A stretch of 64,000 bases of DNA from the NCBI RefSeq assembly GCF_030052815.1, contig NC_079498.1, positions 98,164,041 to 98,228,040 of the forward strand, read 5' to 3'. The stretch comes from Hevea brasiliensis. Lineage: Eukaryota > Streptophyta > Magnoliopsida > Malpighiales > Euphorbiaceae. Positions 23,637-50,636 of this stretch are shown here, one piece after another. Under the pieces are notes generated by a model, which did not search any database, had not been told where the DNA came from, and worked only from the letters and a program-made list of their open reading frames with translations. Within the stretch, counting starts at the first letter, position 1. Each line of letters begins with the position of its first letter. Position numbers and translations under genes: made by a program.

Positions 23637-23641
23637 AAGAA

Positions 23642-25736
23642 TGTCACGACCCAACCTATGGGCCGGACCGGCACTAGGACCTGGGTTAGCCTAAAGCCCC
23701 CGAAGCTCGTAGTAAGCCTAACTATCCCTCAACCCAACTCTAAGGCCCATTTGGGCCTAATTTCAAGAATTCAACGGGACAGAGTCCGGCCATAAAATGG
23801 ATCTTTCAATGGGAAGTTTTTGACTCACTCGACCTGTAAATACAATATATAATCAATTGGGGAGCTCAGCTCACCCTCCACCTACTCAAATGTCACAAAA
23901 ATAAATGGGAGCTCAGCTCCCTCATCCAGTCTAACATGGTAATTATATTACAGACCCAAATCAAATAAATATTTCTAACACATGCAGAAATTTTATGAGT
24001 TAATAAAATTATACAAATAATAATAAACGACCTGCGAAGAAGAAAAGCAAGTTAACCACAACAAATATCCTCCTGTAGCCTAGAAAAATAATGAACAGGA
24101 GTGAGCGTTCAACTCAGAGAGTAAAATATCAATTTTAACCATAATCTCTATAGCTATTTAAAGCTAATGCACCCTGTGAAGTGAAATGCAGCATCGTCAA
24201 TATTTTCACATCATAATAGCAAAAAGGTAATTTGGAGCACTCACACACCCGATAATGTCAAACAATACATATATGGGAGATGATCCTCTATACAGCCCTC
24301 TTAATCCAAACTGTGCCAGTGAAGAACTCAAGCTCGGACTTTCGCTTAATAAACCAAATCGGGGTCCCAACTAAGAACTCAAGCCGTGTCTACCCCAAAG
24401 GACCGGGTCCCAGCGAAGATCTCAAACCGTGTCTACCCATCCTGTCCATAGCCAACACCACTTCACATGCACGCCAATGCATGCACACTACTATAAATTA
24501 CCACAACAACATTCATGGCACTTTAACAGTTATGAATGCAACATAAAACGTGCCTAGAGTTTAACTACATAGATATATACATATAAGTGATGCATGGGCA
24601 TGCTTGAACATATAATAATATCGAAATTACAATTAAAATTAATATTTTACTCACAGACTCAATCAAACTCACTGTGGCGGATGGGCGGAGGAGGAAGGCT
24701 GTCCCTGCTCACCTGATATTTTATTACAATCATTTAATAAATTTGACACAATACAAACTAAGAAAAAGACCAAATATGTCATAAGTTGTGCCGAAAATCT
24801 GGTAGAGTCTCCCCTATACCTAGGACCTATCCAACCTGCAAAAGGGCTTAAAACATGCTTCTATATCCACAAACCATACACCCATAACTCAATCACATCA
24901 CACAGCCCCTCCTGGGCCCATCCAAACAATCATCAATCACTATATATAAAATTACAGTTTAGTCCTTATAATTGACTCTTTCTACAAAAACTACCCAAAT
25001 AAGCTCTAAAAATTCTAAAACTTTGCCCGGTGGTCTTTAGCAATATTACTAAGTTAATGCAAAAGGAATTATAATTTTCTGAGCTACCATGAATATTTTA
25101 TGAATTTTTAATCCAATTCAAGCACTAGAAAATTATGAAAAAGTGAGGTTCGGGTTTACCTATGTCGATTCCGACTTCGGGGATGCGCTCGGGACATCTG
25201 ATAATGGTGAGGTAGCCAAAATCTCGATCCAATTCTAAGACTTTTTCGATAGCCGGTCTGTCTGGCCGGAATTTCACAGACTTAGCAACCGTCGAATTTT
25301 CACGAATTGAAGGTACCTATACGAAGCCCACAACACGGGAGTTAGTATATAATTTTTACAAAATTTTCTAAGCTCATTTAATGCTCGAAAAAATACTATG
25401 AAGTTTCATGAGACCCATCGAAAAACGGTGTAGGAAAATTTTGAAATTTATATTTCCGCGAAGCTCTCGACGAGTGGAGTGCTTTGATACTCTCGGTTTT
25501 CTCTTGGGGTGCACGATTTGCGAGAAATCTAGCCGAAAATTCAAAATGGATTAAAATTTTTCGGACAAAAATTAGGCAAACAGCTAAATGGATTTTGGTG
25601 TTCTTGGTGTCTATGGAAAGCTCTCGAGGTGTAGATGGTGTTTGACACAATACATTGCCAATCGGTTCTGGATTTCGACCGAGGAGCTAAAGGCTGCGCG
25701 CATGGTGGAGTCTTCGACGCTTTTTCCGGACTGAGT
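23642..25736 (-). mobile_element. 3' LTR of the E element, U5-side part (minus orientation)
   Basis: The + strand starts TGTCACGACCCAACC, the reverse complement of the LTR end GGTTGGGTCGTGACA. That this is the U5 end is shown at about 44120, where the same end adjoins the PBS of the minus-strand element. The segment is an inverted copy of 44870-46966, with the same gtg-rich and CTCGAGAGCTTTC landmarks. It is cut at 25736 by the Tekay-type D element; the remaining U3 start lies at 38790-39078. Target duplication AAGAA at 23637-23641 abuts its outer end. Confidence 0.8.
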
Positions 25737-26297
25737 TGTAACACCCCCGTTGTATAGCCTGGTATATTTCACTGTTCCGGTGACCGGTGTCGGTCCGGAC
25801 AAATAAAGAGATTAGAGCCACACTTAAGACAACTTGAGAAGCCATAAACACAAATAATTAGTAATGTTTAATTAGTTAACTATAAATAAGAAAAACAGAA
25901 CATAAGAGGTTAAACGAGCCGAGAGTCACAGCGATGAGTGACCTCCTGAAACAGCTGCGAAGTCATTTTAAACTCAAATTTCGAACCGTAAAAAGTGACG
26001 CTGCGGTCCTTAGGACCCTTATGAACACAGTGGAAAAGAGAAAATCATGAAAAAGAACTGTTAAGTCAGTCAAATAATTAGGTCAGGGAGCCGGAAGAAA
26101 TATTGGATTATTTGCAAACCGGGATGAACCGGCGAGGGGCAATTTGGTCAATTGACCCCGAGAGCTGACTCCTGACCTAACTGTCGAATAAAATCGGAGA
26201 AAAGAAAATTTCGGAATCGAGAATTAAATTAAAGAACTAATAGAAAAATAAAAAAATAAAAAAAAAGAGAAAAGGAAAGAGGTTGGAAAAGTCAAAA

Positions 26298-26325
26298 GTT
26301 ATGACATCATGCATGATGTCATAAC
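26298..26325. repeat. Perfect 28-bp palindrome with TGACATCA half sites around CATGCATG
   Basis: The core is TGACATCATGCATGATGTCA, extended by four bases on each side; it reads the same on both strands. An identical copy lies at 34720-34747 in the partner LTR, and variants lie at about 2268-2300, 6194, 18979 and 50022. CATGCATG is the RY box bound by plant B3 factors, and TGACATCA resembles bZIP half sites. A regulatory role in the LTR is inference. Confidence 0.7.
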
Positions 26326-27226
26326 TAAATTAATAAATTGAATTAATTAATTTGGATTTAGGGGTCTTCCATAAGCAAAAAAACGTGTAAAAGGAAAACA
26401 AAGGAAAAAAATTTAGGGTTTTCTTCTTCTTCACCTCTCTCTTTGCCACCCCATTTTCCCCAAAATCCTCCATGAATGGTTCTTCATTTAAGCTTACTTT
26501 AAGCTTGAATTTCTTCATCCAATCAACATCACTCCCCTAGAAACTTCATTAGACCTTGCAATCTCAACCTAGGAACAAGAAAGAAAGAGGAAAGGAAGAG
26601 AGAAAGTGAAGAATTGGCATTTAAAGTTAAGGTTAGTATGTTAAACTTCTTATTTCTTCACTTAAATGCATGATTAATGGTTGAAATGAACTTAGGATTA
26701 AGGAAATGAAATAAAAATATGGGGGAAGGACAAACTAGAATTTCAGCCAGCCATGGATGTGGGAGAGTTTGATGTATTTTGAATGAATTAAATGTGTTAG
26801 TAAGCTTGCATGAGAATGGTAGTAAGTTGGAAATGCATAAATGGGAGTAAATGCAACATTTTAGTGTAGTTAGGGTTTGAATATTAGGGTTTGTAAACCA
26901 AAAATTTGGAGAAATGCATAAATGATATTTTTGACCAATTGTGGACTGAAAAATGGTCAATAATGACCAAATGAATTGTGTGGGAATGGTGGAAAATTTA
27001 GCTAAATTCGTAGGTCAATGGTCATGCTGCTGGCAGCATGACCAAACCTATTTTGAAGGACCAAAACTCAAATTTTACAAGCCTAATGGATATGCCACCA
27101 ATTGGAGATGAAAATAGACATAAAAGAGCACAATTTTCATTAAGGAACCATTGCCAAAAACTGACCAAAACTTGGTGAAACAATTGACCAAAGTGAGTTG
27201 ATAGCAGGCTGCCACTGCACTAAACT

Positions 27227-27257
27227 GACCAAATGAACAGTAACTGTTCATTTGGTC
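27227..27257. repeat. Perfect hairpin in the D-family LTR
   Basis: The arms GACCAAATGAACAG and CTGTTCATTTGGTC are separated by TAA. Similar hairpins occur at about 14694-14723, 35650-35680 and 49093-49123. Confidence 0.8.
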
Positions 27258-29455
27258 ATAACTCGAGCTAGGTAGGTCAAATTGACCTGAAATTTTACCA
27301 GCAATTAGATATGATATAGACCTAAAACTTTCATGAAGAACACCAACCCAAATTAGGCCATTAACTCATTCAAATCATTGAGCAAAGTTAAAATTTCTGT
27401 ACTGAAATTCTGCAGATTTTTAGTTGAGCAGCAATGTTTGGAGGGCTATAACTCTCTCTAGAAAACTCGGATTTAGGCGATTCTTGAACCGATGGAAACC
27501 TAAGACATAGTACAACATTTCATATGAAGAAAGTGAGACCAAATTATGAACTTAACTTGATCAAACAATTGACCAAAGTTGGACCAAAAATCTGCCAGCA
27601 CCTAAATTGCAGTATGAGCGATTGCATGTGAACAGTAAACTTATTTTGGCCATAACTTGAGCTACAAAACTCCGATTGAGGTGATCCAAAAATGAGAATA
27701 CACTTAAGACAATAAGGAACATTTTCTATGAAGGAAGTTTTGTCAAATTCCAACAGTAGATCGACCAATGGAATAGTGCAACTTCGGAAAACCAAAACCG
27801 AAAATTGGCAATTTTGCCAAAATGACCTAAGCTTTAAACAAATGACCAAAACCAACAAGTTTGGTGACCAAAATGTGGTATGTGGGTGAAGTTGGAGTTC
27901 CCATACCTATTAAGCCTTAGAAAGTCAATAAATTGACTTGAATAGTGCAGTTAATAGTAACCGAAACACAAAAATTTCGAGAACGTCGAATTTAACACGT
28001 TAGAGTTAGGTAAATGTGAAGCTAAGTTTATTTTGAATTTATTTTAAGTTCTAATACTGAAACATTGTAAAATTGTGTGTTTCAGTTGAAAAGAATATCG
28101 GGAAGGAACCGAGGAACCGAGTCGAGGTTAAAGGGGCGACTCGTTTGAGGTTTGTGCACAATATTACTATGCTTTAAAAAAATTCATTGATTAAATGAAT
28201 GAAATATGCATTTTATTGTTGCTTTGAATTGTTGAAAGTATTGTGACCTTACTTATGATGTTTTGATTCAAATTGTGAAATTTATTGTGTATATTTGAAA
28301 TGACAATGTTTAGCAAATTGTTAAGATAAGTTTTAAAACAACATAATAAATACCATATGTTTGAAAACCTCACTAGCACGACGAGAGGGGGTAATTAGTT
28401 CAATTTTGATTCCTTCTCCGGAGAAGTGTTGAGGTGTGCCAGTAGAAGAGGATGTGAATGGATATCCATATATTTGAGCTAGCTAGCCTTGTGACATGAT
28501 TTCTCTTTAGCCTCGGCTATCGAGATTCATGTGATTTCTCTTAGCCTTTGGCTATTGAGATTCTATTTGTTTCGAATGGCATGATTTAACTGTGGGTTTT
28601 ATGAAATGTGTTTTGATACTTTGAAATAAACTTGGTTTACATGTAAAATCTTACAATGCATGATTGTATTTAATTTTCATGTTTAGTCAAATTTTTGAAT
28701 GAATCTTCTATAAGTTATGCATAAAGAATATATAAGAATATTGTGCACCTTGAGTCTTAGTACTCGTGATAGCTTTATTCTTTGTCAGAATCTGAAATTA
28801 GAGGAAGCGGCAGGTGAGTCTTGAGGTGTGTGAAGTCATCGGCTTGAAGTCTTGGGTATAATTTATACCCTAGCGTAAATATTTCTTTTGATGTATATAT
28901 TGCACATAAATGTATGGACATGTACATGGGTCTTGAGCGCTTGTACAAAGTTTGTATAAAAGTTGTAATAAATTTTAGTTTGGACTTCCTGAATGTAAAT
29001 TTTAGTATGATGAATATATAAATTGTTTATCTTGAATGGAATATGAATAAATGATATTGATGGACAGTATTTTGAAGAAATTATTGAACTTATGAATTTG
29101 AGAAATTGATTGAGATTGAGTTTGAAATTGAAGTAGTGGTTGAGAAAAACTTTTAGAAGTGCTTTTACAATTATTCGAAGAGCGGTTTTCTCAAAATACA
29201 GAGGAAACTCTGTCAAAATTTTTATAAAATTTGCGGAAAACTAAAATGGCCAAAAATATTAATTAGTTTTAATTTCAACTAAATGTTTTAAATACTTATT
29301 TGAAATGCTCACCACTTGTCAAAGATAAGAAAATTGTTTTAAAATCCCTTGTAGGGTACTTAATGAGTTATCGGTAGGTGAAGTTCGGTAGTTCATTAGG
29401 TATTCTACGGGATCATGTTATGCCTTACAGAGGGGTAAGGTGTGACATGTTTTAG

Positions 29456-29467
29456 TGGTATCAGAGC
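29456..29467 (+). other. Primer-binding site of the Tekay-type D element
   Basis: TGGTATCAGAGC, the complement of the 3' end of initiator Met-tRNA, eight bases after the LTR end. Confidence 0.85.
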
Positions 29468-29480
29468 AAATTTTTGAATT

Positions 29481-30805
29481 ATGTTTTCAATTGTGAATTT
29501 GTGTCTTTTCTTTGTTAAGTACAACTGCTCAATGTCCATATTTGTTACATACAGTGCATTACATCATGAATATGAACTAACGGAGAAATCTCCTTGTGTT
29601 ACTTGTTCAGAGATACCTAACTTCACTGAAATGGAAGAAGGGGATCGCTCAGTTGAGCGATTTGTTGAAGCCGAGGCACAAGGAAGCCCGGCTTTACGAA
29701 TGTTAGTGGGTCGGCAGACCCCACAAATGCCGCGATTCCTGCCTGATTCGCCTGCAGATGGCTGCGATGTTTCAACAAATGGTTGAGGTATGCTGCTCAA
29801 GCTCCACCCCAACCACTGTGGCACAACCACGCCTCGGCTAGACAGTTTGATAAATTGCTAAAGTATGGGGCTGCGAGAATTTAAAGTACTGATGGACCCT
29901 TTAGAGGCGAGCAATGGCTTGAAAGAATGGGCCAGTGTTTAAGAAAGCTATCGCCAAGATGAGTGAAGTTGGAATATTACGTGTCGCTCTGCAAGGATGC
30001 GTATGATTAGTGGAAGACCATCCCCACGGCTTATTGAACCACGATCTTGACACAGGATGACTTCATCGAGAGTTGAGAAATACATCGGATGCATATGTTG
30101 ATCGAAGCGCAAGAATTTTTGAGTTTGAAACAAGGGAACCGAGCGTAGCAGTATGAAAGAGATTTCTCAAGGCTAAGCCACTATCTTTGGAAGCTTAGTC
30201 TCCACCCAGAGCAGATGCAAGAGGTTTGAGTCGGGCTAAGGCAGTGCGAGAATGCAAGTTGTGGGTTTTAGACATCGAATTTTTACGAATTGATCTCACA
30301 AGCCTTGGAATTAGAAAGGATAGAATCGGAAGAGGCGGTGAGGAAGGGTTCACAAGAGAAATCGAGAAAAAGACAAGGGGAAAAATCGGTTGAGCGAGTT
30401 ACAGTGCTACCTCTGGAAAGAGAAAGAAGTTTAGTGGACCCAGAGGGTCGGGGTGGAAAGATTTAGTAGAGGCAGATTTTCGGACGAAACCCCTAGGTCC
30501 GGCCATCAGCGAGGAGTTCACAGTCTACCGCCTTGTGAGACTTGTGGCAAGATTCATGGGGAGTGTTATTGGGCCACTGGAGCTGTTTTAAGCTGCGGAG
30601 GCAAGGGTTATTTAGTAAGAGGCGTACTAGTGCTCAGAGATATGGTCGGCTCCTACTCTGCCGAGGATCTATTGAGTCCTGCTCCCGAGGTTCACGATCG
30701 GTTAGCGGAGGAAGAGGCGGTAGAGCCTTTGAGTGATCGAGGCACAATTGGTCGATCGGGACAAGGAAGTGCTTCAACGAGAATCTACGCAATGAAACAA
30801 TGAGA
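29481..30805 (+). pseudogene. gag: Tekay-type gag (frameshifted)
   Basis: Gag structural protein of a Ty3/gypsy chromovirus. In order I see an acidic start (MEEGDR, about 29630), capsid-like signatures split between frames (KYGAAEF and EQWLERM regions near 29865-29940), and a matrix stretch at about 30230-30330. A zinc knuckle with CETCGKIHG and LSCGGKG lies at about 30535-30625; that CxxCGKxH form is typical of Del/Tekay gag. The frame breaks many times by one- or two-base indels. The second partial copy at 37940-38789 has different breaks at different places, so neither is intact. The short ORF 30453-30803 is its C-terminal part. Confidence 0.75.
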
Positions 30806-31370
30806 AGAGGTGAGACTTACGATGTAGTGGTAGTACATTCTCTATCTACGATTAAGAAGTATTTGTATTGTTTGATCGGGTTCAACCCATTCATATGTTA
30901 GTGCTAGCATAGTTTGTTCACTTCTTTGCATTCCATGTGTGCAAATGGGTTTTGAAGTGCTAGTAACTAGTCCGTTAGGACAAGAGGTCCGGTCAATGAA
31001 TCTATAGAGGCGTCCTTTGGTGATCCAAGGACATGTTTTCATGTTAGACTTGATTGAAATGCCCTTGAGAGTATGATATTATCTTGGGCATGGATTGGTT
31101 AGCGAGCATCATGCTATGATTATCAGTAGGCGAAAAGATCACTTTTGGTCTCCCTTTATGCGGTGATGTGGTAATACGGGAGAGGCATTTCACGCCATCA
31201 AACATCATTTATTGCACTAGCCGGAAGGATGATTAAAAAGGGTGTGAAGCATACTTGGCACATGTGATAGACACCCGGTGGGGAGTCGGCACTAAGGGAC
31301 ATCCCTACGGTATGTGACTTTCGGATGTATTTCTGATGAATTGCAGGATTACCTCGAGAAGAGAGGTGCG
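30806..31370 (+). pseudogene. Tekay-type protease region (degraded)
   Basis: Between the zinc knuckle and reverse transcriptase, the + strand encodes in several frames the usual end of the aspartic protease domain. Examples are a VLVTS-like stretch near 30955, a QGHVFMLDLIEMPL segment near 31027-31065 and an ILGMDWL motif near 31077-31098. The catalytic Asp-Ser/Thr-Gly triplet is not readable because of deletions around 30850-30900. The protease would cut the gag-pol polyprotein. Assignment rests on position and the ILGMDWL motif. Confidence 0.6.
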
Positions 31371-32155
31371 ATTTGAAATTGATGTTATGCACAGTGTGGA
31401 CCCAATCTCCATAACGCCATATAGAATGGCACTGCAGAATTGAAAGAGTTGAAAGTGCGATTGCAAGAGTTGCTTGACAAGGGCTTTATCCGCCCTAGTG
31501 TGTCACCTTAGGGAGCGCCCGGTATTGTTTGTAAAGAAGAAGGATGGCACTCTCGGTTATGCATTGATTATCGGCGATTGAATAAGGTGACAATAAAGAA
31601 TAGATATCCATTGCCCGCATTGATGACTTGTTTGATCGGTTGAAGTGCGGTATGTTCTCCAAAATTGACTGAGATCGAGTTATTATCAATGAAGGTACAA
31701 GAGCAAAGTATTTCTAAAGCGCCTTGAGAACCCGCTATGGCCATTATGAGTTCTTGGTCATGCCATTCGGGTTAACTAATGCTCATTTGCTTTTATGGAT
31801 CGATGAACACTATTTTGGACCATACCTCGACCAGTTTGTTGTGGTATTCATAGATGATATATTGGTCTATTCGAGGAATGCGAGAAGAGCATGATAGACA
31901 TCTGCGGATTATCTGCAGACTTTGAGAGAGAAAGCGACTATATGCCAAATTGTCGAAGTGTGAATTTTGGCTGAAAGAAATATCTTTTTTGGGGCATATA
32001 GTATCAGAAGAGGGCATTAAGGTAGATCCAAGTAAGATTGAAGCTGTCCTTAATTGGAGGCCACCCAAAAATGTCACAGAGATTCGTAGTTTTAGGTTTA
32101 TTGGATACTCTGATAGATTTGTGAAGGGATTTTCCATGTTGGCATCTCCATTGAC
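31371..32155 (+). pseudogene. pol: Tekay-type reverse transcriptase (frameshifted)
   Basis: RNA-dependent DNA polymerase of the element. Landmarks in order: [13 protein letters not shown] at about 31465-31500, KKKDG and [12 protein letters not shown] at about 31535-31595, [12 protein letters not shown] near 31735-31772, and the catalytic [10 protein letters not shown] with FIDD at 31847-31858. The thumb follows: [23 protein letters not shown] at about 31947-32020, then the [22 protein letters not shown] connection. At least four frame changes separate these blocks. The family form is a single uninterrupted pol frame, so this copy cannot make enzyme as written. Confidence 0.85.
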
Positions 32156-32620
32156 CAATTGCTTAGAAAAGATGTAAAATTTCGGTGGATGGATAAATGC
32201 CTGAGTTTTTATGAATTGAAGAGATGTTTGACTGAAGCTCCAGTCCTAACTTTACCTACTCCGGGTAAAGAGTACACAGTTTATAGCGATGCTTCTCACA
32301 ATGGGTTAGGTTGTGTGTTGATGCAAGATCGAAATGTTATTGCCTATGCATCACGCCAGCTAAAACCGCATGAGAGGAATTATCCGACACATGATTTGGA
32401 GCTTGCAGCCATTGTGTTTGCTCTTAAGATCTGGAGACATTATTTGTATGGGGAGAAGTGCTACATCTACGGATCATAAGAGTTTAAAGTATTTGGGCAC
32501 CAGAAGAGCTGAATTTGAGGCAGAGGAGATGGTTAGAGTTGATAAAGACTATGATTATGCGATAGAATATCACCGGGGAAGGCTAATGTTGTGGTGATGC
32601 CTTAAGTCGCAAGACTATGG
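32156..32620 (+). pseudogene. pol: Tekay-type RNase H domain
   Basis: RNase H removes the RNA strand during reverse transcription. ORF 32159-32479 carries [15 protein letters not shown], then [18 protein letters not shown] with the first catalytic Asp, [20 protein letters not shown] with the catalytic Glu, and [13 protein letters not shown] frameshift near 32470 breaks the YTDHKSLKY motif. The ADALSR end motif near 32590-32610 is also split (VVMP in this copy). Confidence 0.85.
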
Positions 32621-33885
32621 CAAGTCTACGGGTTACTCCTTTGTCTTTGGTACATGAGTTGAGATCATTGCATGCCAGCTTAGAGATTAACGATGATGGG
32701 CAGACAGCGGTTGCATGGCATGTACAGCCAGTGTTGATTGATCAGATTAGAATGGCTGCTCAGAATGATCAGAAGTATCAGAAGTTGATGGAGGAAGTCC
32801 GACAGGGAAAGAAACCGAATTCTCACTCGAGAGATGATGGTCTATTGCTACACCGAGCGAGAATGTGTTTTCATAATGATTTTGAATTGAGGAGGATCAT
32901 TTTAAATGAAGCACATGATTCTCCTTTGCCATGCACCACAGTGGTACAAAAATGTATAGAGGGCTAAAGGAGCATTCTTGATGGATGGGTATGAAGAGAG
33001 ATGTGCCGAATTTGTATCCAAATGCCTAACTTGTCAAGTGAAGCGAGCATCAAGTACCATTGGGTTGTTACATCCACTACGATGCAGAATGGAAATGGGA
33101 AAGAATAACGATGGATTTTGTGATGGGACTTGAGGACACGGAAGAGTCATGATGCGATTTGGGTCATTGTTGTGACAGACTAAATCTGCTCATTTTACGC
33201 GATTCGGATGGACTACGATTTAGAAAGATTGGCCAAGTTATACATCGATGAGATTGTGAGATTGCATGGAGTGCCGTATCTATCGTATCGACAGAGATCC
33301 TAGGTTCACTTCTAGATTAGGGTAGTCTTGAGAGAGCCCTAGGAACTAGATTGAACTTGATGCGGCATTCCACCCGCAGACGGATGGCCAATCGAGAGGG
33401 TAATTCAGATCTTGGAGGATATGCTATGGGCTTGTGTGATTGAGTTTGAGGCGGTTGGGATACACACTTGCCTTTGATTGAGTTTGCTTACAACAACGGC
33501 TACCAATCAAGCATTGGGATGCCTCCATATGAAGCTTTGTATGGCAAAATGTAGAACCCCATTGTGTTGGGATGGCGTGGGTGAAAGAAAGATGATTGGA
33601 CCGAAATTGTTCAACGGTGAAGAGAAAATCCGGGTGATCAGAGATCGACTTAAAGTCGCATCGGATCGTCGAAGTCCTACATTGATTTGAAGAAGGGATA
33701 TTGAGTATGCGATGGGTGAGAAAGTTTTCCTCAAAGTTTCTCCTTGGAAGAGAATTATGAGATTCGCGAGAAAGGAAACTAAGTCCTCGTTTCATTGGAC
33801 CATATGAGGTTACGGAGAGTGGGTCCTTTGGCATATCGGTTGGCACTACCTCGAGTTGGAGAAGATACATAATGTCTTCCATGTG
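32617..33885 (+). pseudogene. pol: Tekay-type integrase (frameshifted)
   Basis: The integrase inserts the cDNA. The N-terminal linker is intact in ORF 32617-32967 (VHELRSLHA to ILNEAHDSP, with the first zinc-ligand His). A CLTC-type zinc pair follows near 33030. The core has MDFVMGL near 33113, an FHPQTDG-like motif near 33368 and AYNN near 33487; ORF 33478-33690 covers PPYEALYGK- and CWDGVGERK-like blocks. The C-terminal part near 33730-33880 has the KVSPWKR and MRF motifs. Indels occur every few dozen bases. Confidence 0.82.
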
Positions 33886-34140
33886 TCTATGTTGAGGAGG
33901 TATCGATCAGACCCATCTCATGTACTACCGATAGAGGAAATTGAAGTAAATCCGGACCTCACATATGAAGAAGAACCCATAAAGATTACGGCTTATGAGG
34001 TGAAGCGACTACGGAATAGCGGATACCGTTGGTAAAAGTCTTTGTGGAACCATCATTCGGCCAAGAAGCTACTTGGGAGCGAGAGGAGGACATGAGGAGA
34101 CAACACCACAGCTATTCGAGAGATTGGTACGAGTAAAATT
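33886..34140 (+). pseudogene. Chromodomain-like C-terminal tail of D-element integrase
   Basis: Reads MLRRYRSDPSHVLPIEEIEV, then a YEEEPIKI block, KRLRN, VKVF and TWEREEDMRR, ending near 34140. This is the tail typical of Del/Tekay chromoviruses, thought to guide insertion to heterochromatin. One frame is mostly open here, with a shift near 34015-34030. Confidence 0.7.
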
Positions 34141-34158
34141 TGAGACGAAATTTATTTA

Positions 34159-34168
34159 AGGGGAGAAT
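34159..34168 (+). other. Polypurine tract of the D element
   Basis: AAGGGGAGAA(T) directly precedes the 3' LTR start TGTAACACCCC; it primes plus-strand synthesis. Confidence 0.8.
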
Positions 34169-39078: not shown

Positions 39079-39095
39079 TTCTTCTCTCCTTACAG
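39079..39095 (-). other. Polypurine tract of the E element
   Basis: On the minus strand CTGTAAGGAGAGAAGAA directly precedes the LTR start, which fixes this LTR as the 3' LTR of the minus-strand gag-pol. Confidence 0.75.
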
Positions 39096-39104: not shown

Positions 39105-39343
39105 CCTCGAATTTTTTACATATGGAAGAATAAAGTACAGAATTACACATTGAATAGATAAGGGTACTTGCTACGCATGTCCCACTCTGACTCTCAAGTG
39201 CACTTTTCCACTGACTGACTCCTCTACAAAACCTTAACCATAGGGATCTGTTTTGATCTTAGCTACCTCACTTGGTAGTCCACTATGGCTACAGGTTGCT
39301 CCTCAAACGTCAGGTTTTCTTTTAGCTCTACTACATCCGACTA
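39105..39343 (-). pseudogene. Chromodomain-like tail of E-element integrase (three TAG stops)
   Basis: Continues the integrase frame past a TAG at about 39341. It reads VVELKENLTFEEQPVAIVDY, then LRSKQIPMVKVL, then SEWDMRSKYPYLF, ending near 39115. That matches the Del/Tekay tail of the D element in order. Two further TAGs replace likely Gln or Trp codons, consistent with C-to-T or G-to-A decay at methylated sites. Confidence 0.72.
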
Positions 39344-40612
39344 TAGCACATGAGAAGGATCAGGTATGTATTTTCTAAGCATGGAGATGTGAAATTCAGG
39401 ATGAACATGAGAAAGGTTGGGTGGTAACTCCAATAGGTAGGCAACTGCTCCAACCCTATCAGTAACCTTAAAAGATCTAATATACCGAGGTGCCAACTTG
39501 CCCTTCTTTCCAAATCTCATGACTCCCTTCATCGGAGAAACCTTCAGGAATATGTAGTTGCCTACTGTAAACTCCACATCCCTCCATCTGGGATTTGCAT
39601 AACTCTTCTGCCTGCTGAAAGCTATTTTCAGTCGTTCCCTGATTACAAGAACCATCTTTGAAGTGTACTGCACTAGGTCTACATCATGCGCCTTCGCTTC
39701 TCCCATTTTAGTCCAACACAGAGGAGACCTACACTTTCTGACATACAATGCCTCATAAGGTGCCATCCTTATGCTGGAGTGATAACTGTTGTTATAGGCA
39801 AACTCCACCAAAGGTAGCTGATCATCCCATTGACCTCCAAAATCCAAAACACTCATGCGAAGCATGTCTTCCAATGTTTGGATTATCCTTTCGGACTGTC
39901 CATCTGTTTGAGGGTGGAAAGCGGTACTTAAGTTCAAATGCGTTCCAAGTGCCTCCTACAACTTTCTCCAAAACTAAGAAGTGAACTGGGCCCTCTGTCA
40001 GATATTATGGAAGCAGGAACTCCATGCAATCTAACGATTTCTCGAATAGAGTCGGGCGTACTGTGCAATAGAATATGTGATCTTCATAAGCAAGAAATGA
40101 GCTGATTTAGTTAGGCGGTCTACAATTACCCATATCGAATCATATCCTCGCGTGGTACGAGGTAACCCAGTCACAAAATCCACAGTAATCATTTCCCACT
40201 TCCATTCTGGGATAGGGAGCTCTTGCAGCTTCCCTGATAGCCTCTAGTGTTCAAACTTCACCTTCTGACAAGTCTAGCACTTGGACACGAAGTCTGCTAT
40301 GTCTCTCTTCATGCCATTCTACCAATAGCTATCTTTCACATCATGGTACATCTTGGTGGAGCCTGGGTGGACATTGTATAGTGTATAATGTGCCTCTCGC
40401 GTGATTTCATTTCTGAGATTGTCCACGTCGGGCACACATATCTTGGAACCTTGCATAAGGGCGCCATCATTGGCAAATCCAAACTCACCACCTTCACCCT
40501 GCTGTACTCTTTCTATGATTTTCATCAATTGTTGGTCTCTGTGCTGGGAAACTCTAACTCTGTCTCGCAGGTCTGGTCTCACTGAAAAATGAGCCAACAA
40601 TACCCCCCTCAT
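39341..40612 (-). pseudogene. pol: E-element integrase
   Basis: Two open parts cover most of the domain. Part 40612-40319 holds the linker and the zinc-binding start (LRNEITREAHYTLYNVHPGS, with both His). Part 39937-39341 holds STAFHPQTDGQSERIIQTLEDMLR with the catalytic Glu region, EFAYNNSYHSSI, APYEALYVRKCRSPLCW, and the C-terminal KVSPMKGVMRFGKKGKLAPRYI and HISMLRKYIPDPSHVL. The 40318-39938 stretch, with the second zinc pair and two catalytic Asp, is broken by stops and frameshifts. The D-element integrase has the same block order. Confidence 0.88.
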
Positions 40613-40658
40613 CTGAAAGATCTAAGATCAGACCTTCATCCATCAACTCATGTATTTC

Positions 40659-41213
40659 CTAAATCAACAGTCTCTTCTCTGCTGATATGTATGCCAAGCT
40701 GCCAGAAGATTTTCTGCTCAAAGCATCTGCTATTACATTGGCCTTTCTAGGGTGGTACTGGATGGTACAATCATAGTCCTTCAGAAGCTCCATCCATCTC
40801 CTCTGTCTCAAGTTTAAATCCCTCTGTTGGAAGATGTACTTCAAACTCTTGTGGTCGGTGTATATCTCGCACACTTCACCATACAGGTAGTGTCTCCAAA
40901 TCTTTAGTCCAAAGACTACAGCCACCATTTCCAAATCATGAGTGGGATAGTTCTGCTCATGCCTCTTCAGCTGCCTTGAAGCATAAGCCGCTACTTTTTC
41001 ATTTTGCATCAAAACACACCCTAAGCCAACTCTGGAGGCGTCACAGTACACGGTATATCCTTCACTACTCATCAGTAGTGTCAACACAGGGGCAGTGGTT
41101 AGACACTCCTTAAGCTTCTGAAAACTCTCCTCACAATCATCTATCCAAATGAATGGAACATTCTTCCGAGTTAACTTAGTTAAGGGAGCTGCTATCCTAG
41201 AAAAATCCTGCAT
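40659..41213 (-). pseudogene. pol: E-element RNase H domain (open but detached)
   Basis: A 184-codon open stretch. It starts in the RT connection ([18 protein letters not shown]), then has [18 protein letters not shown] with catalytic Asp, [20 protein letters not shown] with catalytic Glu, [13 protein letters not shown] with the third Asp, and [10 protein letters not shown] with the last Asp. All four catalytic positions are present. Only the upstream and downstream frame breaks in pol make it a pseudogene; this is the best-kept domain of the element. Confidence 0.9.
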
Positions 41214-42262
41214 GAAATGCCTGTAGTAGCCAGCTAGGCCCAGAAAACTTCGTACCTTAGTGACTGTTGTAGGCCTAAGCTAATCAGTTACAGCCTCAAT
41301 TTTCTTGGGATCCACTTGAATGCCTTCACTAGAAACCACGTGTCCTAAGAATGAGATGCTTTCTAGCCAAAATTCATATTTTGGAAATTTGGCATATAGC
41401 TCGTGCTCCCTCAAAGTCTACAACACCATCCTCAAATGCCACACGTGTTCTTCCTCGGTCCGAGAGTATACCAAAATGTCATCTATGAATACGATGACAA
41501 AACGGTCCAGGAATGGCCTGAAAACCCTATTCATCAAGTCCATGAAGGCTGCTGGTGTATTAGTGAGTCTTAAAGACATCACCAAGAACTCATAATGACC
41601 ATATCTTGTCCTGAATGTTGTCTTGGACACATCCTTATTCCCGATTCTCAACTGTTGGTAGCCTGATCGCAGGTCTATCTTGGAAAAGAATCTAGCCCCT
41701 TGGAGCTGATCAAACAGATCATCGATCCAAGAAAGTGGATACTTGTTCTTCACAGTCACCCTGTTCAGCTGTCTATAGTCAATGCACAACCTCAATGACC
41801 CATTTTTCTTTCTCACAAATAGAACAGGAGAGCCCCAAGTGAAGTGCTCGGACGTATGAAACCCTTGTCCAAAAGCTCCTGTAGTTGCTCCTTTCGCTCT
41901 TTCAATTTTGCTAGTGCCATCCTGTAAGGCGGCATTGATATGGGGTTTGTACTCGGAACAATATCAATGTAGAACTCTATTTCCCTTCCTGGTGGCAACC
42001 CTGGAAGCTCCTCAGAGAAGACATCCATGAATTCTCTAAGAACAGGAACATTTTCCATGTTGACACTTTCTACAGATGTATCTCTCACCAATGCCAAATA
42101 CCCTTGACATCCACGCCTCAACATTTTTCTAGCACTAATTGTTGACACCAAATTATATGGAGCTACGCTCCTGTTACCATCAAAGCTAAACTCTTCCACA
42201 CCAGGTATGTGGAAATACACCCTTTTGTTCCTGTAGTCTAAAGTGGCATAATGAGTTGCCAA
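41214..42262 (-). pseudogene. pol: E-element reverse transcriptase
   Basis: Open part 42262-41813 has the protease-RT linker and fingers ([38 protein letters not shown]). After a frameshift near 41815, part 41816-41418 has [44 protein letters not shown] and the catalytic [10 protein letters not shown] (FIDD at 41489-41478). A stop at about 41417 and a frameshift break the thumb at 41417-41214. Met-Ser replaces the usual Met-Pro-Phe-Gly turn after YGHYEFLV, another sign of decay. Confidence 0.9.
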
Positions 42263-42538
42263 CTAATTCATTCCCAGAATTACATCGAAATCCATTACTG
42301 ATAGAGGAACCAAGTCCGCTGGGAGGATTCTTCCATCCACTACTACTGGGCTACTGGGAAAAATCATATCTATATCTATGTTGTCACTAAGTAGGGTAGC
42401 TATAGACAAAGGACATTCTAAAGTTGTAGGGTTTCTACCCAATCTCATAGCAAAAACTGGGGAGACAAATGAGTCCGTAGAACCTGGATCTATTAAAACA
42501 CGAGCCTCATAGGAACAGACTAGAAGAATACCTGCCAT
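42263..42538 (-). pseudogene. E-element aspartic protease
   Basis: 91 codons, with the active-site region VLIDPGSTDSFVS near 42500-42460 and VILGMN at the end. Ty3/gypsy proteases carry Asp-Ser/Thr-Gly; here Asp-Pro-Gly occurs, which some plant gypsy proteases also show, so loss of activity is not certain. It adjoins gag upstream and RT downstream in the usual order. Confidence 0.8.
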
Positions 42539-43892
42539 AACTACATTGCAAGCCTGAGCATCCTGGTGGGTCAGGGTGAAAACCTGAGCTTGACCCCTAC
42601 CCTGCGTTGCAGAACCTTGATATTGACTTCTACCTCCTGATCTACCTCCAAATCTATGTCCCTCTTGTCCCCGGCCCTGTTGGCCACTAAACTAACTGCT
42701 TGTTATACTGGAAGCACCAAGATAAAACTGACGAGGAACATTTGTAATAGAACCCTGTGACCCCATCTGTGGCTCGCTAAACACGGGGCATTCCCTAGCA
42801 AAGTGACCTAGTTGGCCACACCTGAAACATATCCTGAACCTATCATACAAGGTCCTGAATGTCCTCTTCCACACTGTGCACAAGGTGCTAAGGAGGATCT
42901 CAACTGCACAGTAATCGCTGTATCCCAAATCGTGACCATCTTGGATCCGCATCGGTCTGAATCCTCGAGATTTGTGTCTAAAACCACTCCTCTTATTCCT
43001 ACTTCTTCCTCTATAATTACTTTGGCCTCCGCTATCTGGAGCACCCATGTGGGAAACACCTGAAGGACCCTCTACTCTATTTTTCTTTGCTCTTCCATTG
43101 TCATCTCCGGTGTAGCTAATCTCAATCTATCGAGCTCGATCAACTACCACATCAAAAGACTGATCAGACATCATGGCCAGGTTTGCATACCTCCTGTCCA
43201 GCCCCTTTAGGAACCTTTTCACCTTCATACTTTCTGTAGCCACTGTTGTAGGGGCAAATCTGCTCAGTTCCAGAAATTCCGTAGGATATTCATCTACAGA
43301 CCTGCCATTTTGTCTTAAGGCCTCAAAGGCCCACTGCTTATGATCTCTGAAACTTTCTGGTACAAACCTGTTAATAAACAGTTCCATAAACTGGGTCCAT
43401 GACAAACCTTCCATCCGAGGTAATATTTAGTCATTCATCCATTGTCTAGGCATAGACCCCATGACATGCTACACACATTCTATAAGTCTCATATCAGTCA
43501 ACTGCAAATCTATTCTTGCCTGTCTGCAGGAATCCAAAAACCGATAGGCATCGTCTGACACATCATAAGTACTAGGCACCAACTTCTTGAAATTGATTAT
43601 CTGTTTGTAAGGTTTCCCTCTTGGTGCGGTGGACTGCTGCTGCTGTGGGGGGGTGAATCATATACTGCACTATCATATCGATGGTTCTCTGCAAACTAGC
43701 TAGAGTAGCTGCCATTGGGTCCATGGAACCCTGTGCCATAAAAGACTGTTACTGAACTGGTGGTGGCTGCTCCTCTACTTTAGCAGCTCTAGGCCTCCTA
43801 CCCCGCCTCCTCAGGGCAGGCGCCTCATCCTGTCCGACACCTCGCCCGCACATCAGTTCTCGTGCGATGGCAGCTCTCCTGCTTCTACGCAT
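42539..43892 (-). pseudogene. gag: E-element gag with CCHC zinc knuckle
   Basis: The likely start is the Met at 43892 (MRRSRRAAIARE), followed by a Pro/Arg-rich head. The capsid part is open at 43414-43127 (WTQFMELFINRFVPESFRDHK to KRFLKGLDRRYANL), the Retrotrans_gag signature. A CCHC knuckle CFRCGQLGHFARECP lies at about 42829-42785. Stops and a frameshift at a G-run near 43650 separate the blocks. Gag would package the RNA. This knuckle differs in type from the CxxCGKxH form of the D element, so the two elements are distinct families. Confidence 0.85.
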
Positions 43893-44103: not shown

Positions 44104-44115
44104 GCTCTGATACCA
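44104..44115 (-). other. Primer-binding site of the E element
   Basis: Minus strand TGGTATCAGAGC, the initiator Met-tRNA complement. It lies about four bases from the U5 end at 44120 and fixes the orientation of the element. Confidence 0.85.
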
Positions 44116-44119
44116 CATT

Positions 44120-44366
44120 TATCATGACCCAACCTATGGGCTGGATCGGCACTAGGACCTGGGCCAGCCTAAAGCCCCCAAGGCCTGTAGTAAACCTAAC
44201 TATTCCTCAACCCAACTCTAAGGCCCATTTGGGCCCAATTTCAAAAATTCACAGGGAGTTTTTGACTCACCTGACCTATAAACACAATATAATCAATTGG
44301 GGAGCTCAGCTCACCCTCCACATACTCAAATGTCACAAAAATAAATGGGAGCTCAGCTCCTTCAAA
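44120..44366 (-). mobile_element. Remnant of the E-element 5' LTR (U5 end only)
   Basis: About 247 bp matching 23642-23925, next to the PBS. At 44367 it meets, head to head, the U3 start of an LTR in the opposite orientation. The rest of the normal 5' LTR is absent. Confidence 0.8.
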
Positions 44367-46966
44367 TGTAACACCCCAAATTTTAAATTTATTATTTTAT
44401 GAGTAAATAATAATATTTTAAAATATTTAAATTTTAGGAAATTATTTAAAATTTTTCAGATTTTCGAAATCAAGTTTGGTTTCCCGAAAATATAAAACTT
44501 TGATGATTTTTAAAAATTAATTTAAAGACCACGTGGCAAAACTAAAAATATATTTGGACTCTACAAATTTTTCTGAGTTTTCTAGAATTTTTTTGAAATT
44601 TTTGGGCCTCGTTTTCGGTCCCAAGGCAGAGTAAAAATTTAAAATTTTATATCCCGAATCGAAACGGCCGAATCAAACTGGACCAGATCGGACCGGTCGA
44701 ATTGGACCGGCCTTTTCTTTTCTTCTTCTTCCCTTCCCTGCACGTCCCGTCCCTCTTCCTCTCTTTCCCATTTTCTCTCTCCTCCCTCCTCCCCAGGCCA
44801 CGCCGCCGCCACCCAGCCTTCCCCACCTCACCGGCGCACCGCCCCAATGCCTCCTCACGGTCGGCCAACGCTGCAGGCGGCAGAAAAATGCGTGCGAAGA
44901 CCCACCTGCACTTGCACGCCGCTTCAGCTTCCTGGCTGAAATCCGGTCGATCCGGCCACCAATTTTTTCAGATCTTATGTCAAACACCATCTGCACCTCG
45001 AGAGCTTTCTATAGACACCAAGAACACCAAAATCCATAGAGCGGTTTGCCCAATTTTTGTCCGGAAAGTTTTAACCCATTTCGACTTTTGGGCTAGATTT
45101 CTCGCAAACCGTGAACCCCAAGAGAAAACTGAGAGTACCAGAGCGCTCCACTCATCGAGAGCTTAGCGGCAATATAAATTTCAAAATTTTTTGACATCGT
45201 TTTTCAGTGGGTCCCACGAAACTTCGTAGTATTTTTCCGAGCATTAAATGAGCTTAGAAAATTCCGTAAAAATTATACACTAACCCCCGTATTGTGGGCT
45301 TTGTGTAGGTACCTTCAATTCGCGAAAATTCGACGGTTGCCAGGTCTGTGAAATTTCGGCCAGACAAACCGGCTACCGAAAAAGTCTTGGAATTGAATCG
45401 AGATTTTGGCTACCCCACTATTGTCAGACGTCCCTAGCGCGTTCCCGGAGTCAGAATCGACATAGGTAAACCCGAACCTCACTTTTTCATAATTTTCTAA
45501 TGTTTGAATTGGATTAAAAATTCATAAAATATTCGTGGTAGCTCAGAAAATTATAATTCCTTTTTCATTAGCTTAGTAATATTGCTAAGGACCGTGGGGC
45601 AAAGTTTTAGAATTTTTAGAGCTTATTTGGGTAGTTTTTGCAAAAAGGGTCAATTATAAGGACTAAACTGTAATTTTACATATTGTGATTGATGACTATT
45701 TGGATGGGCCCAGGAGGGGCTGTGTGATGTGATTGAGTTGTGGGTGTATGGTTTGTGGATATAGAAGTGTGTTTTAAGTCCTTTTGCAGGTTGCATAGGT
45801 CTTAGGTATAGGGGAGACTCTGCCGGATTTTCGGCACGACTTAGGACATATTTGGTCTTTTTCTTAGTTTGTATTGAGTCAAATTTATTAAATGATTGTA
45901 ATAAAATTGTCAGGTGAGCCGGGACAGCCTTCCTCCTCCGCCCAGCCGCCACAGTGACTTCGGTTGAGTCTGTGAGTAAAATATGAATTTTAATTGTAAT
46001 TTCGATATTATTATATGTTCAAGCATGCCCATGCATCTCTTATATGTATATATCTATGTAGTTAAACTCTAGGCACGTTTTATGTTGCATTCATAACTGT
46101 TAAAGTGCCATGGATGTTATTGTGGTAATTTAGAGCAGTGTGCGTGCGTTGGCGTGCGTGTGATGTGGTGTTGGCTATGGACAAGACGGGTAGACACGGC
46201 TTGAGATCTTCGCTGGGACCCAATCCTTCGGGGTAAACACAGCTTGAGTTCTTCGCTGGGACCCCGATTTGGTTTATTAAGCGAAAGTCCGAGCTTGAGT
46301 TCTTTGCTAGCACAGTTTGGATTAAGAGGGCTGTATAGGTGATCAGCTCCCATATATGTATTGTTTGACATTATCGGGTGTGTGAGTGCTCTAAATTACC
46401 TTTTTGCTATTATGATGTGAAAATATTGATGATGTTTCATTTCACTTCACAGGGTGCATTAGCTTTAGATAGCTATAGAGATTAAGGTTAAAATTGATAT
46501 TTTACTCTCTGAGTTGAACGCTCATTCCTGTTCATTATTTTTCTAGGCTACAGGAGGATATTTGTTGTGGTTAACCTGCTTTTCTTCTTCGTAGGTCGTT
46601 TATTGATATTTGTATAATTCTATTAACTCCTAGAATTTTCGCATGTGTTAGAAATATTTATTTGATTTGGGTTTGTAATATAATTACCATGTTGGACTGG
46701 ATGAGGGAGCTAAGCTGCCATTTATTTTTGTGACATTTGAGTATGTGGAGGGTGAGCTGAGCTCCCCAATTGATTATATATTGTGTTTACAGGTCAGGTG
46801 AGTCAAAAACTCCCCGTTGAAAGGTCCATTTTATCGCCAGACTCTATCCGATTGAATTCTTGAAATTGGGCCCAAATGGGACTTAGAGTTGGGTTGAGGA
46901 ATAGTTAGGCTTACTATGGGCCTTGGAAGCTTTAGGCTGGCCTAGGTCCTAGTGCCGGTCTGGCAC
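44367..46966 (+). mobile_element. Inverted (+ oriented) E-family LTR at the right end, part 1
   Basis: Starts TGTAACACCCCAAATTTT. It is the inverted counterpart of 39078-38790 and 25736-23642. The full LTR is 2,618 bp once the solo LTR is removed (2,600 bp here plus 18 bp at 50614-50631). The GC-rich block 44650-44930, which gives ORF 44702-45166 and its antisense shadows, lies in the LTR body and has no known family. Part of it is missing from the left copy. Confidence 0.8.
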
Positions 46967-49900
46967 TGTCACACCCTACTCCTCATAAGATGTAACATAT
47001 TCTCGTAGTACACGTAATGAATTACCGTACTTCACCTACCGGTAACCCATTAAATATACTACAAGAGATTTTAAAATAATTTTCCTTCATTTTGGAATTG
47101 GTGGGTAAAATTTTTTTTTAAATATTAAAAACCTTTATTTAAAGTCCAAATATAAATCAAATTTTTGGATATTTAAAATCTTCGTAATTTTTATAAAAAT
47201 TTCGGCAGAGTGCAGTCTGTATTTTGAGAAAACAGTTCTTCAAAACCTGAAAATAGAAACACTCCCAATATATTTTTCAATCACAACTCCAATTGCAACC
47301 ACCAAACTTCAAATCAACAGCAATAGCAATACTTCAATTCAAAATCCAAATTTCAAATCAAAAATTAATATCTCAAAACATTTCATAACTTATGCGCATT
47401 GTATATTAAATATTTAATTTTACATTCATAAGTTGATTTACAGATGCAAAATCTCAAAAATAATATTATTACAAGTTTATCTGTACAACTGCTCAAATTA
47501 CAGGGATACATATGCATACTATCATATTTACATCAAACTAAACTACCAGGGTATAGACAAATACCCGTACAAAAATTCTTCAATTGTGCTCTTCTCTAAT
47601 CAGAGCAGCTCGCTCTGCTATGTCCTTTTCCCTATCTGCGACAGCAAGTTAAAGCTATCGCTGAGTATATAAATACTCAGTGGTGCACAATAAAGCATAA
47701 AATGCATAATATAAAACATTTATGAACAAATCATCATTTAAAAATCTCATAATCGCATTTCACAATTTTTTTCTCAAATCACATTTATAACAAATCATAA
47801 TTTTCAAAACTTAATATAGCACACTTTGATCAAACAATTTAATAAACATAGTGTTGCTAAACAATAACACATCTTAGGCCATGACACAAAATTTCCGAAC
47901 ATGCCGTGTGTACATCACGACAAGGCAAACACCCCCACTAATCGAAATCAATGAGGGAGGTGGCTAGCTAGCTAATGAGTACTCATTCACACTCACCCCT
48001 AAGACTGGGAAGCCAGAGAGGGAGGAAACTGATCAAATATCATACTCACCCCACAAGTGGAGGAAGAACATATTAGTATTACCATGCCAAGTGTGAATAA
48101 AAATAATTTAAATTAAGTTATTCAAATATTTTATACAATTCACAAATCATATTTCATTCCAAACTTTTCATTTACAAAGTGGGCAACACACTATTTTTCA
48201 AATAAGATTTTCAAAGCCATAACTAAATTCAAAATCATATTGTTCAAATATTTCATACAAATCAATAATTAATTTTCATTCCAAAATTCCATTGTAAAAT
48301 AGGCGACACAACGTTCTCAAAATTCATAATGAACAAAAACATTCACAATGTATAACAAATCAAGTTTTCAGTGGGAAAACGATAATTTAAAGTTATTGTA
48401 CACAAATCTGGACTTAATCGCCTCTAGGCCTTCCGGGTCTTTTTAAGCTGAAACACAAAATTTATAGTGTTATAGTACCTTATTTCACAGTAAATCCAAT
48501 AATTAATTCATAAATACTTAATTCTAGCTCAAATATGCTTAAACTAACATTCTTAGAAATTTTCATTTTGGAGTTACTATTCATGATACTATTCAAGTCA
48601 ATTTGTTGACTTTCTAAGGCTTAATAGGTATGGGAACTCCAACTTCACCCACATACCACATTTTGGTTACCAAACTTGTTGGTTTTGGTCATTTTCTCAA
48701 ATTCTAAGTCTTGTAGGCAAATTTGCAATTTTTCAGTTTTTGTGTCCTAAGTTACACTGTTCCATTGGTCACTTTACTATTAGAATTTGGCAAAACTTTC
48801 TGCATAGGAAATGTTCCCTATTGTCTCAAGTTTATTCTCCTTTTTGAATCACTCCATTTGGAGTTTTGTAGCTCAAGTTATAGCTATTTGAACCATGGCT
48901 GCTGGATTGGACTTAACCCAGATTTCTGGGCAAATTTTGGTTCTAGCAGTTTTAGGTCACCAACTTTGGGTGGCCAAATGACTTGGTTAATGGCATAATT
49001 TGGGTTTATATTCTTCATAAAAGTTTTAGGTCTATATTTCATCTAACCACTGGTAAAATTTCAGGTTATTTAGACCTGCCTAGCTCAAGTTATGGCCAAA
49101 TGAACAAACACTGTTCATTTGGTCAGTTTGTACAGGGACAGACTGAGATTTTCCAAGTTTGGTCAATTTGTTCACTAGGTTTTGGTCACTTTTTGGGCAT
49201 GCTTCCTATATGAAAATTGTGTCATTTAGTGTCTATTTTCATTCCCGATTGGTCTCATACCAATTGGACTTGTAAATTTTCATTTTTGGTCCTTCAAAGG
49301 TAACTTGGTCATGCTGCTAGCAGCATGACCACACTCAATCTGAATTTGGTTTCAACTCCAACACTTTCAACACACTTCATTTGGTCACTATTGACCATTT
49401 CTCACTTCAAACTAGGTCTAAGACATCTTTTACCAATTTTTTCACATTTTTGTCTCTAACCCTAAGTGTCCCAAAACCTTAACTTACTAAATTGTTGCAT
49501 TTAATCACATTTAAGCATTTCAATCTTACTACCACTTTCATACAAGCTTACTAACAAATTTAATTCATTCAAAACACATCATATTCTCATACATCCATGG
49601 CTTGCTGAAATTCCCCTTGGTCCTCTACAAATGTTTTCTTTTGATTTTAAATAAATTTCTAGGTTACTCAAACCACAAACATAACCAATAAACTAAAATT
49701 TTCAATTTAGATTGCTTATCTCACTTGAAATTCCTCTTCCTCAATTCTCTTCTTTTTTTTTTCCTTTCCTTTTCTTGCTCAAACTTCTTTTCAAGTGAAA
49801 TCAACAAGGTTTAAGGTTGGTAAGCAAATTTTCTAGGTTGGGATTTAGGGTTCTTCAAGATCAAAATGAGCTTTAATAGTGGTTTAAGTGAGGGAGAGGG

Positions 49901-50608
49901 TGAGGGAGAGAGTGAGGCGGCAACCAAGAAGAAGATAGCTTTTTTTTTTCTTTTCTTTTTCTTTTATTTCTTAAGAAGACCATAATTCAATTTAATTAAA
50001 TTTATTAATTATAATCTTTATGGCATCATGCATGATGTCATGCATGATGTCATCTCCCTACACCTTTTTCATTTTCTTTTTTTTTCTATTTATTTTTTTT
50101 ATTAGTTCTTTAATTTAATTTCCGACTCTGAAATTTTCTTTTCTCTGATTTTATTTGACAGCTAGGTCAGGAGTCAGCTCTCAAGGTCAATTGACCAAAT
50201 TGCCCCTCGCCGGTTCAACCCGGTTTGCAAATAATTCAATATTTCCTCTGGCTCCCTGACCTAATTATTTGACTGGCTTAACAGTTCTTTTTCGTGATTT
50301 TCTCTTTTCCACTGTATTCGTAATAGTCCTAAGGATCGCAGCATCACATTTTACGATTCGAAATTTGAGTTTAAATCGACTTCGCAGTCGTTCCTGATAA
50401 GGTCACCCATCGCTGTGACTCTCAGCTCGTTTAACTTCTTATGTTCTGTTTTTCTTATTTATACTTAACTAATTGACAATTACTAATTATTTGTGTTTAT
50501 GGCTTATCTAGTTGTCTTAAGTGTGGTTTCAATCCCCTTAATTTTTCGGACCAATTCCGGTCACCGGAACAGTGAAATATACCAGGCTTTGTAAATAGGG
50601 GTGTTACA
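46967..50608 (-). mobile_element. Solo LTR of the D family, minus orientation, with perfect TSD
   Basis: 3.64 kb. The minus strand starts TGTAACACCCCTATT and ends GGAGTAGGGTGTGACA. GGCAC flanks both sides (46962-46966 and 50609-50613). It matches 1709-5217 and 25737-29447 in reverse. It carries a CATCATGCATGATGTCATG repeat near 50022-50050. No PBS or coding sequence, so it is a solo LTR inside the right E LTR. Confidence 0.87.
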
Positions 50609-50613
50609 GGCAC

Positions 50614-50631
50614 ATAGGTTGGGTCGTGACA
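50614..50631 (+). mobile_element. Inverted E-family LTR, part 2 (U5 end)
   Basis: ATAGGTTGGGTCGTGACA completes the right LTR after the solo LTR, and AAGAA (50632-50636) follows. AAGAA also precedes 23642, so both outer ends of the 27-kb element are U5 ends. Confidence 0.85.
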
Positions 50632-50636
50632 AAGAA

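What the first reader, a model, noticed from the sequence alone, without database searches (positions are those of the whole stretch)
23637..50636. A retrotransposon integrated through two U5 ends, with LTRs in opposite orientation
Seen: AAGAA lies at 23637-23641 and 50632-50636. The inserted DNA starts TGTCACGACCCAACC and ends GGTTGGGTCGTGACA, so both outer ends are the same LTR end. The PBS at 44104-44115 and PPT at 39079-39095 of the minus-strand gag-pol prove this is the U5 end. The flanking Tat gag frame is continuous when one AAGAA copy is kept, so the insertion is precise. Known: a normal element has one U3 and one U5 end outside. Inference: the integrase used a cDNA whose 5' LTR was replaced by an inverted full LTR joined to a 247-bp U5 remnant at 44366/44367. 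A template switch or joining of two cDNAs could produce this; simple self-integration would not copy the last 247 bp twice.
Basis: partly seen in the sequence, partly recalled or inferred. Interest (0 to 1): 0.75.

Follow-up and report, generated by a model that had tools for sequence, protein, structure and literature searches.

The report
Retrotransposon inserted by two identical ends
In what is probably a rubber-tree genome, an old jumping element sits in its target with the same end facing outward on both sides, which suggests that the ends of two DNA copies were inserted together; it looks like a rare accident rather than a new kind of element.

Summary
A Ty3/gypsy-type element on the minus strand (39079-44115) lies between two LTRs in opposite orientation. 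Both outer ends are the U5 end (15 of 15 bases identical) and both are flanked by AAGAA. With one AAGAA kept, the flanks give the gag frame of a Tat-like host element; the 12 relatives printed, of 63 that span the point, cross it without a gap. Inside, a 245-bp U5 remnant (44120-44364) and two bases AA meet the U3 start of an inverted full LTR at 44367. The three U5 copies diverged about equally (private changes 13, 9, 7), as expected if they arrived together. One LTR stretch differs from its partner by 16 gaps in 100 bases, against 1 in the other 1,900, so the LTRs probably came from two templates. Best reading: integrase inserted the U5 ends of two cDNAs, whose other ends were joined head to head with a deletion. 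Main rival: a second copy inserted exactly into the first one's AAGAA, then a deletion. The genome search for other copies did not complete, so recurrence is untested.

The parts
23637..23641 (.). left copy of target-site duplication AAGAA
   Evidence: single copy in the empty-site reading
23642..25736 (-). left LTR, outer part; U5 end faces out
25651..25736 (-). patch of left LTR strongly diverged from right LTR
   Evidence: 16 gap openings in the 100-base window 25637-25736 that holds it, 1 in the other 19 windows
25737..38788 (+). nested LTR element (two LTRs 95.4% alike), inserted later; its right edge and some 210-220 bp of the host LTR are missing; right boundary uncertain by a few bases
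38789..39078 (-). left LTR, inner part with U3 start at 39078
39079..39095 (-). polypurine tract next to U3
39341..43426 (-). decayed gag-pol of a Ty3/gypsy-type element
   Evidence: 8 of the 10 pieces scanned are from here, 7 of these 8 matched a retroelement domain; 5 further pieces of the element matched none
44104..44115 (-). primer binding site TGGTATCAGAGC (initiator methionine tRNA type, recalled)
44120..44364 (-). U5 remnant of the 5' LTR, 245 bp, with an internal deletion of 36 alignment columns
44347..44360 (.). short palindrome GGGAGCTCAGCTCC, 4 bp from the end of the remnant
44365..44366 (+). AA at the head-to-head junction; PPT-side bases of an untrimmed cDNA end, the last bases of an AAGAA, or chance
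44367..46966 (+). right LTR, inverted relative to the left one, starting exactly at U3
46967..50608 (-). nested insert, probably a solo LTR, flanked by GGCAC
50609..50631 (+). last 23 bases of the right LTR; U5 end faces out
50632..50636 (.). right copy of target-site duplication AAGAA
50637..51764 (+). gag of the host Tat-like element, continuing the frame from the left flank, with old stop codons

Best explanation
Shown: one insertion site with two outward U5 ends and a 5-bp duplication, and an inner head-to-head junction of a U5 remnant with a full U3 end. Inferred: RNAs of the family that differed in U3 were reverse transcribed into two cDNAs; integrase paired the U5 ends of both and inserted them together into the Tat-like gag; the remaining ends were sealed by end joining, before or after integration. 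One cDNA kept only 245 bp of its 5' LTR, the other contributed a full U3 end. The second cDNA is now a single LTR, either because it was only an LTR fragment or because its two LTRs later recombined to a solo LTR. Loss of the centre of the resulting palindrome could explain the truncated arm.
For: Exact AAGAA and U5 termini on both sides. Empty site: of 120 listed relatives 63 span the point, 42 of them ungapped; the 12 printed rows are all ungapped. Three U5 copies about equally diverged: private changes left 13, right 9, remnant 7, chi-square p 0.38. LTR stretch with two haplotypes, which one reverse transcription should not leave. Junction starts exactly at the U3 end, with AA as beside the PPT. 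In vitro, HIV-1 integrase used pairs of U5 ends in preference to other pairs, most products with 5-bp duplications (PMC8742673, passages seen).
Against: No second example could be sought: the genome search did not complete. AA alone has a chance of about 7% by composition. The divergent stretch was chosen after seeing it and lies beside a deletion; gene conversion could also make it. Transversions hint weakly that the right LTR is the odd one (left-remnant 1 of 241, left-right 6 of 261, remnant-right 4 of 228), as the main rival would predict. 21 of the 63 relatives that span the site have a gap in that stretch and were not looked at one by one; in the printed relatives only the five residues MEDQE lie left of the site.
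Confidence: 0.66

Rival explanations
1. Two separate insertions at one site: a first copy inserted with AAGAA, a second copy of the same family inserted in opposite orientation exactly into one of those AAGAA, and the resulting near-perfect palindrome lost most of one arm, leaving AA from the middle AAGAA.
For: Explains the outer AAGAA, the AA at the junction, the truncated arm and the two LTR haplotypes; the transversion counts lean this way. Palindromes with a short spacer are known to lose their centre (recalled). An antisense insertion of an Arabidopsis element into itself has been reported (PMC11624286, passages).
Against: Needs a hit on one exact 5-bp position. Over all changes the right LTR is not more diverged than the other two (9 of 29 private changes, 95% interval 0.15-0.51, expectation 1/3), so the second copy would have to be nearly contemporary and from nearly the same source.
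Confidence: 0.2
2. A single cDNA altered during reverse transcription: the growing strand switched templates near the 5' end and copied an LTR backwards.
For: A short palindrome lies 4 bp from the end of the remnant; complex elements ascribed to template switching, with TSDs, are published in grasses (PMC1950507, section 3 read).
Against: The acceptor would have to start at the U3 end and stop exactly at a usable U5 end. The two LTRs differ in one stretch. Similarity of the junction to a nearby U5 stretch is at chance level (273 of 1000 random joins reach it).
Confidence: 0.08
3. Misassembly, or a later rearrangement between the inverted repeats.
For: Long inverted repeats are difficult for assembly; no reads were available.
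Against: Both outer junctions agree on one AAGAA and one gag frame, and the LTRs differ by about 9% (190 of 2060), so they are not one sequence assembled twice. A reciprocal inversion inside the element leaves its outer ends as they were.
Confidence: 0.06

Closest known systems
Template-switch complex LTR retrotransposons of Triticeae, rice and maize (PMC1950507; abstract and section 3 read)
   Same: Complex element with more than two LTR parts but one flanking 5-bp duplication, taken as one integration of an abnormal cDNA
   Different: There a third LTR is shared between two internal regions, and the model gives LTRs in one orientation; here the outer LTRs are opposed, there is one internal region, and the inner junction is head to head
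Concerted in vitro integration of two U5 ends by HIV-1 integrase (PMC8742673; passages)
   Same: Two U5 ends joined to one target, mostly with a 5-bp duplication; U5 pairs preferred
   Different: In vitro, short donor DNA, a lentiviral enzyme; here an old plant insertion, inferred from sequence only
Autointegration of retroviruses and retrotransposons (PMC2644782; passages)
   Same: Aberrant use of cDNA ends that can invert parts
   Different: Gives deletion or inversion circles, not a TSD-flanked insertion with two outward U5 ends
Antisense nested insertion of the EVD element into itself (PMC11624286; passages)
   Same: LTRs of one family brought into opposite orientation side by side
   Different: A second insertion into a first; the passages seen describe no U5/U5-ended insertion

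Membership tests
Ty3/gypsy LTR retrotransposon (internal region) | gag, protease, RT, RNase H, integrase in this order | tested here: met
   Order Retrotrans_gag, zf-CCHC, RVP_2, RVT_1, RNaseH, Integrase_H2C2, SH3_Tf2-1 on the minus strand; the catalytic integrase core itself was not matched in the pieces scanned
Ty3/gypsy LTR retrotransposon (internal region) | PBS beside U5, PPT beside U3 | tested here: met
   (PBS four bases from the U5 end)
Chromovirus lineage | chromodomain after integrase | tested here: inconclusive
   no match in the short decayed pieces scanned
Canonical LTR retrotransposon insertion | direct LTRs, one U3 and one U5 end outward | tested here: not met
   both outer ends U5, outer LTRs inverted
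Single integration event | matching target-site duplication and intact empty site | tested here: met
   AAGAA on both sides; frame as in relatives; the exact-reuse rival would also pass this test
Template-switch complex (Sabot and Schulman) | internal LTR shared between two internal regions | tested here: not met
   one internal region, inverted LTR
DIRS-type element (definition recalled) | tyrosine recombinase, no target duplication | tested here: not met
   AAGAA duplication and integrase zinc-binding domain; a tyrosine recombinase did not appear in the pieces scanned

The most novel reading that the evidence does not exclude
A natural U5/U5 provirus: integrase in a plant cell inserted the U5 ends of two different cDNA molecules in concert, the in vivo counterpart of the U5-pair preference seen with HIV-1 integrase in vitro, preserved in a genome and datable by its LTR divergence.
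Probability: 0.5. Interest if true: 0.62.

Novelty: new variant of a known kind. Interest (0 to 1): 0.5.

Why it matters
If right, two-molecule U5/U5 integration happens in vivo and leaves a recognisable scar: inverted outer LTRs, one target duplication, and a head-to-head inner junction. Programs that look for direct LTRs would miss such insertions (inference), so a simple search could measure their frequency in plant genomes. The locus also holds a long inverted LTR repeat inside a Tat-like element; if transcribed through, it could form a hairpin and feed small RNAs against the family (speculation).

Tried and rejected
Tried without result: a search of the window's own assembly for other copies of the junction was asked 12 times in the same form and never answered; whether that assembly is held at all is unknown. 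Rfam found nothing in the window at gathering thresholds. Ten paper searches ran. Their listings were capped (for example 20 of 67 and 12 of 12,076). Six papers were opened: PMC1950507 (abstract, section 3) and, as passages only, PMC9258317, PMC11624286, PMC2644782, PMC8742673 and PMC12789967. In the listings and in what was opened I saw no described U5/U5-ended retrotransposon insertion. Listed papers that hold the phrases 'inverted LTR' (PMC5633606, PMC8786324) or 'LTRs in opposite orientation' (PMC2151762) were not opened. Most subscription papers are not in that library.

Rejected: microhomology between the junction and a nearby U5 stretch (11 of 18 bases, reached by 273 of 1000 random joins). 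A cut at the RNA start: a TATA-like stretch lies about 23 bases upstream of the remnant's start in both LTRs (sequence, counted by eye), shorter than the usual spacing (recalled), so it was left as a mere possibility. Insertion of a separate LTR into the 5' LTR with its own duplication: the five bases before 44367 (TCAAA) do not match AAGAA.

Full report
What is there. The window is plant DNA, most likely rubber tree: the closest relatives of the interrupted host gag are Hevea brasiliensis proteins (top hit 74% identity over 94% of the query). This origin is inferred, not given. Its first 15 bases and the reverse complement of its last 15 bases are identical.

Orientation. The internal region is on the minus strand: PBS at 44104-44115, PPT at 39079-39095, and gag to integrase zinc-binding and SH3 domains in Ty3/gypsy order between them. 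That fixes 39078 as a U3 start and 23642 as a U5 end. On the right, U5 begins at 44120 as it should, but LTR homology stops at 44364. Two bases AA follow, and at 44367 a full LTR begins at its U3 start and runs in the opposite sense to a U5 end at 50631. Two nested insertions interrupt the LTRs: 25737 to about 38788 in the left one, and 46967-50608, flanked by GGCAC, in the right one. Beside the left nested element some 210-220 bp of LTR (arithmetic) and the edge of that element are missing, which explains its lack of a duplication.

Is it one insertion? Two flanking 5-mers match by chance with probability 0.0012. With one AAGAA kept, the gag frame reads MEDQE-QVQNLQG across the site and goes on to 51764 with 5 stops, the last one at its end; the other two frames have 22 and 30. 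Of 308 relatives found, 120 were listed. Of those 120, 63 align across the point, 42 of the 63 without any gap over residues 25-36. The 12 rows printed, the first 12 found to span it, are all ungapped and read MEDQEQVQNLQG or MENQEQVQNLQG; 11 are named Hevea brasiliensis, one is unnamed. The 21 with gaps were not inspected singly. Since the printed alignments start at that methionine, only five residues lie left of the site. Reciprocal rearrangements inside the element do not change its two outer ends, so the two U5 ends are most simply the ends that were integrated.

Did the parts arrive together? In the three-way U5 alignment, 223 columns hold all three copies. Private changes are 13 (left), 9 (right) and 7 (remnant), compatible with equal ages (chi-square p 0.38). 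Pairwise differences are 22 of 241, 28 of 261 and 18 of 228 for left-remnant, left-right and remnant-right. The remnant has its own internal deletion of 36 columns. Transversions point weakly the other way, making the right LTR odd (1, 6 and 4 in the same order). The long middle parts of the left and right LTR differ at 190 of 2060 aligned positions, and the U3 ends at 15 of 286.

One template or two? Over 20 windows of 100 bases, the one next to the left break holds 16 gap openings and the other 19 together 1; its substitutions alone are not clearly denser (12 of 95, p 0.12). The stretch is still homologous (lenient score 58.5 against at most 41 in 200 shuffles). Substitutions are denser in the 400 bases that include it (47 of 395 against 113 of 1600, p 0.003; counts, test). 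These windows were picked after looking at the data. The two LTRs of one reverse-transcription product should be identical at birth, so this favours two parental templates, though gene conversion is possible.

Mechanism. The reading that covers most facts is that the U5 ends of two cDNAs were inserted in concert and their other ends joined. The junction begins exactly at U3 with AA in front, the same two bases that stand before U3 at the PPT. This fits an untrimmed cDNA end sealed by end joining, but AA also fits a remainder of AAGAA (the rival) and is not rare. An in vitro study reports that HIV-1 integrase used pairs of U5 ends in preference to U3/U5 or U3/U3 pairs, most products having the 5-bp duplication (PMC8742673, passages); whether plant integrases share the preference is not known from any call. 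The second cDNA now shows as one LTR only; solo-LTR recombination or an LTR-only fragment would both do.

Main rival. A second copy could have hit the AAGAA of a first copy exactly, after which the palindrome lost most of one arm. It explains the same outer bases and the AA. It needs a hit on one exact position and near-contemporary copies from nearly the same source, so I rate it at about one in five. The family search that would separate the two could not be run, because the tool did not answer in 12 tries.

Compared with what is known. Complex insertions with one target duplication, ascribed to an abnormal cDNA, are published for grasses, with a third LTR between two internal regions (PMC1950507, section 3 read). 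Autointegration gives deletion or inversion circles (PMC2644782, passages). An antisense nested insertion of the Arabidopsis EVD element into itself is reported (PMC11624286, passages). In the ten paper searches, with capped listings and few papers opened, I saw no U5/U5-ended retrotransposon insertion; the library is partial. I therefore call it a new variant of a known kind of accident. It is not a new class of element, and with U3 lost on the gag-pol side it is very likely immobile (inference).

Noticed in passing
25737-38788 and 46967-50608: Two nested insertions belong to one related LTR family with very long LTRs (about 3.5-4.6 kb), one with both LTRs and one probably a solo LTR; a further relative lies at about 1709-5217.
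   Followed up: partly
58918-60368: Tandem array whose copies match at offsets that are multiples of about 60 bases, 84-91% alike.
   Followed up: no
1-434 and 63567-64000: The first and last 434 bases of the window are direct repeats, 95% identical, perhaps LTR parts of an element that encloses the window.
   Followed up: no
9066-9196 and 13175-13305: Direct repeat of 131 bases at 100% identity among older repeats, perhaps a recent duplication or recombination edge.
   Followed up: no
23642-50631: The inverted LTRs inside a Tat-like element could give a long hairpin RNA if transcribed through.
   Followed up: no
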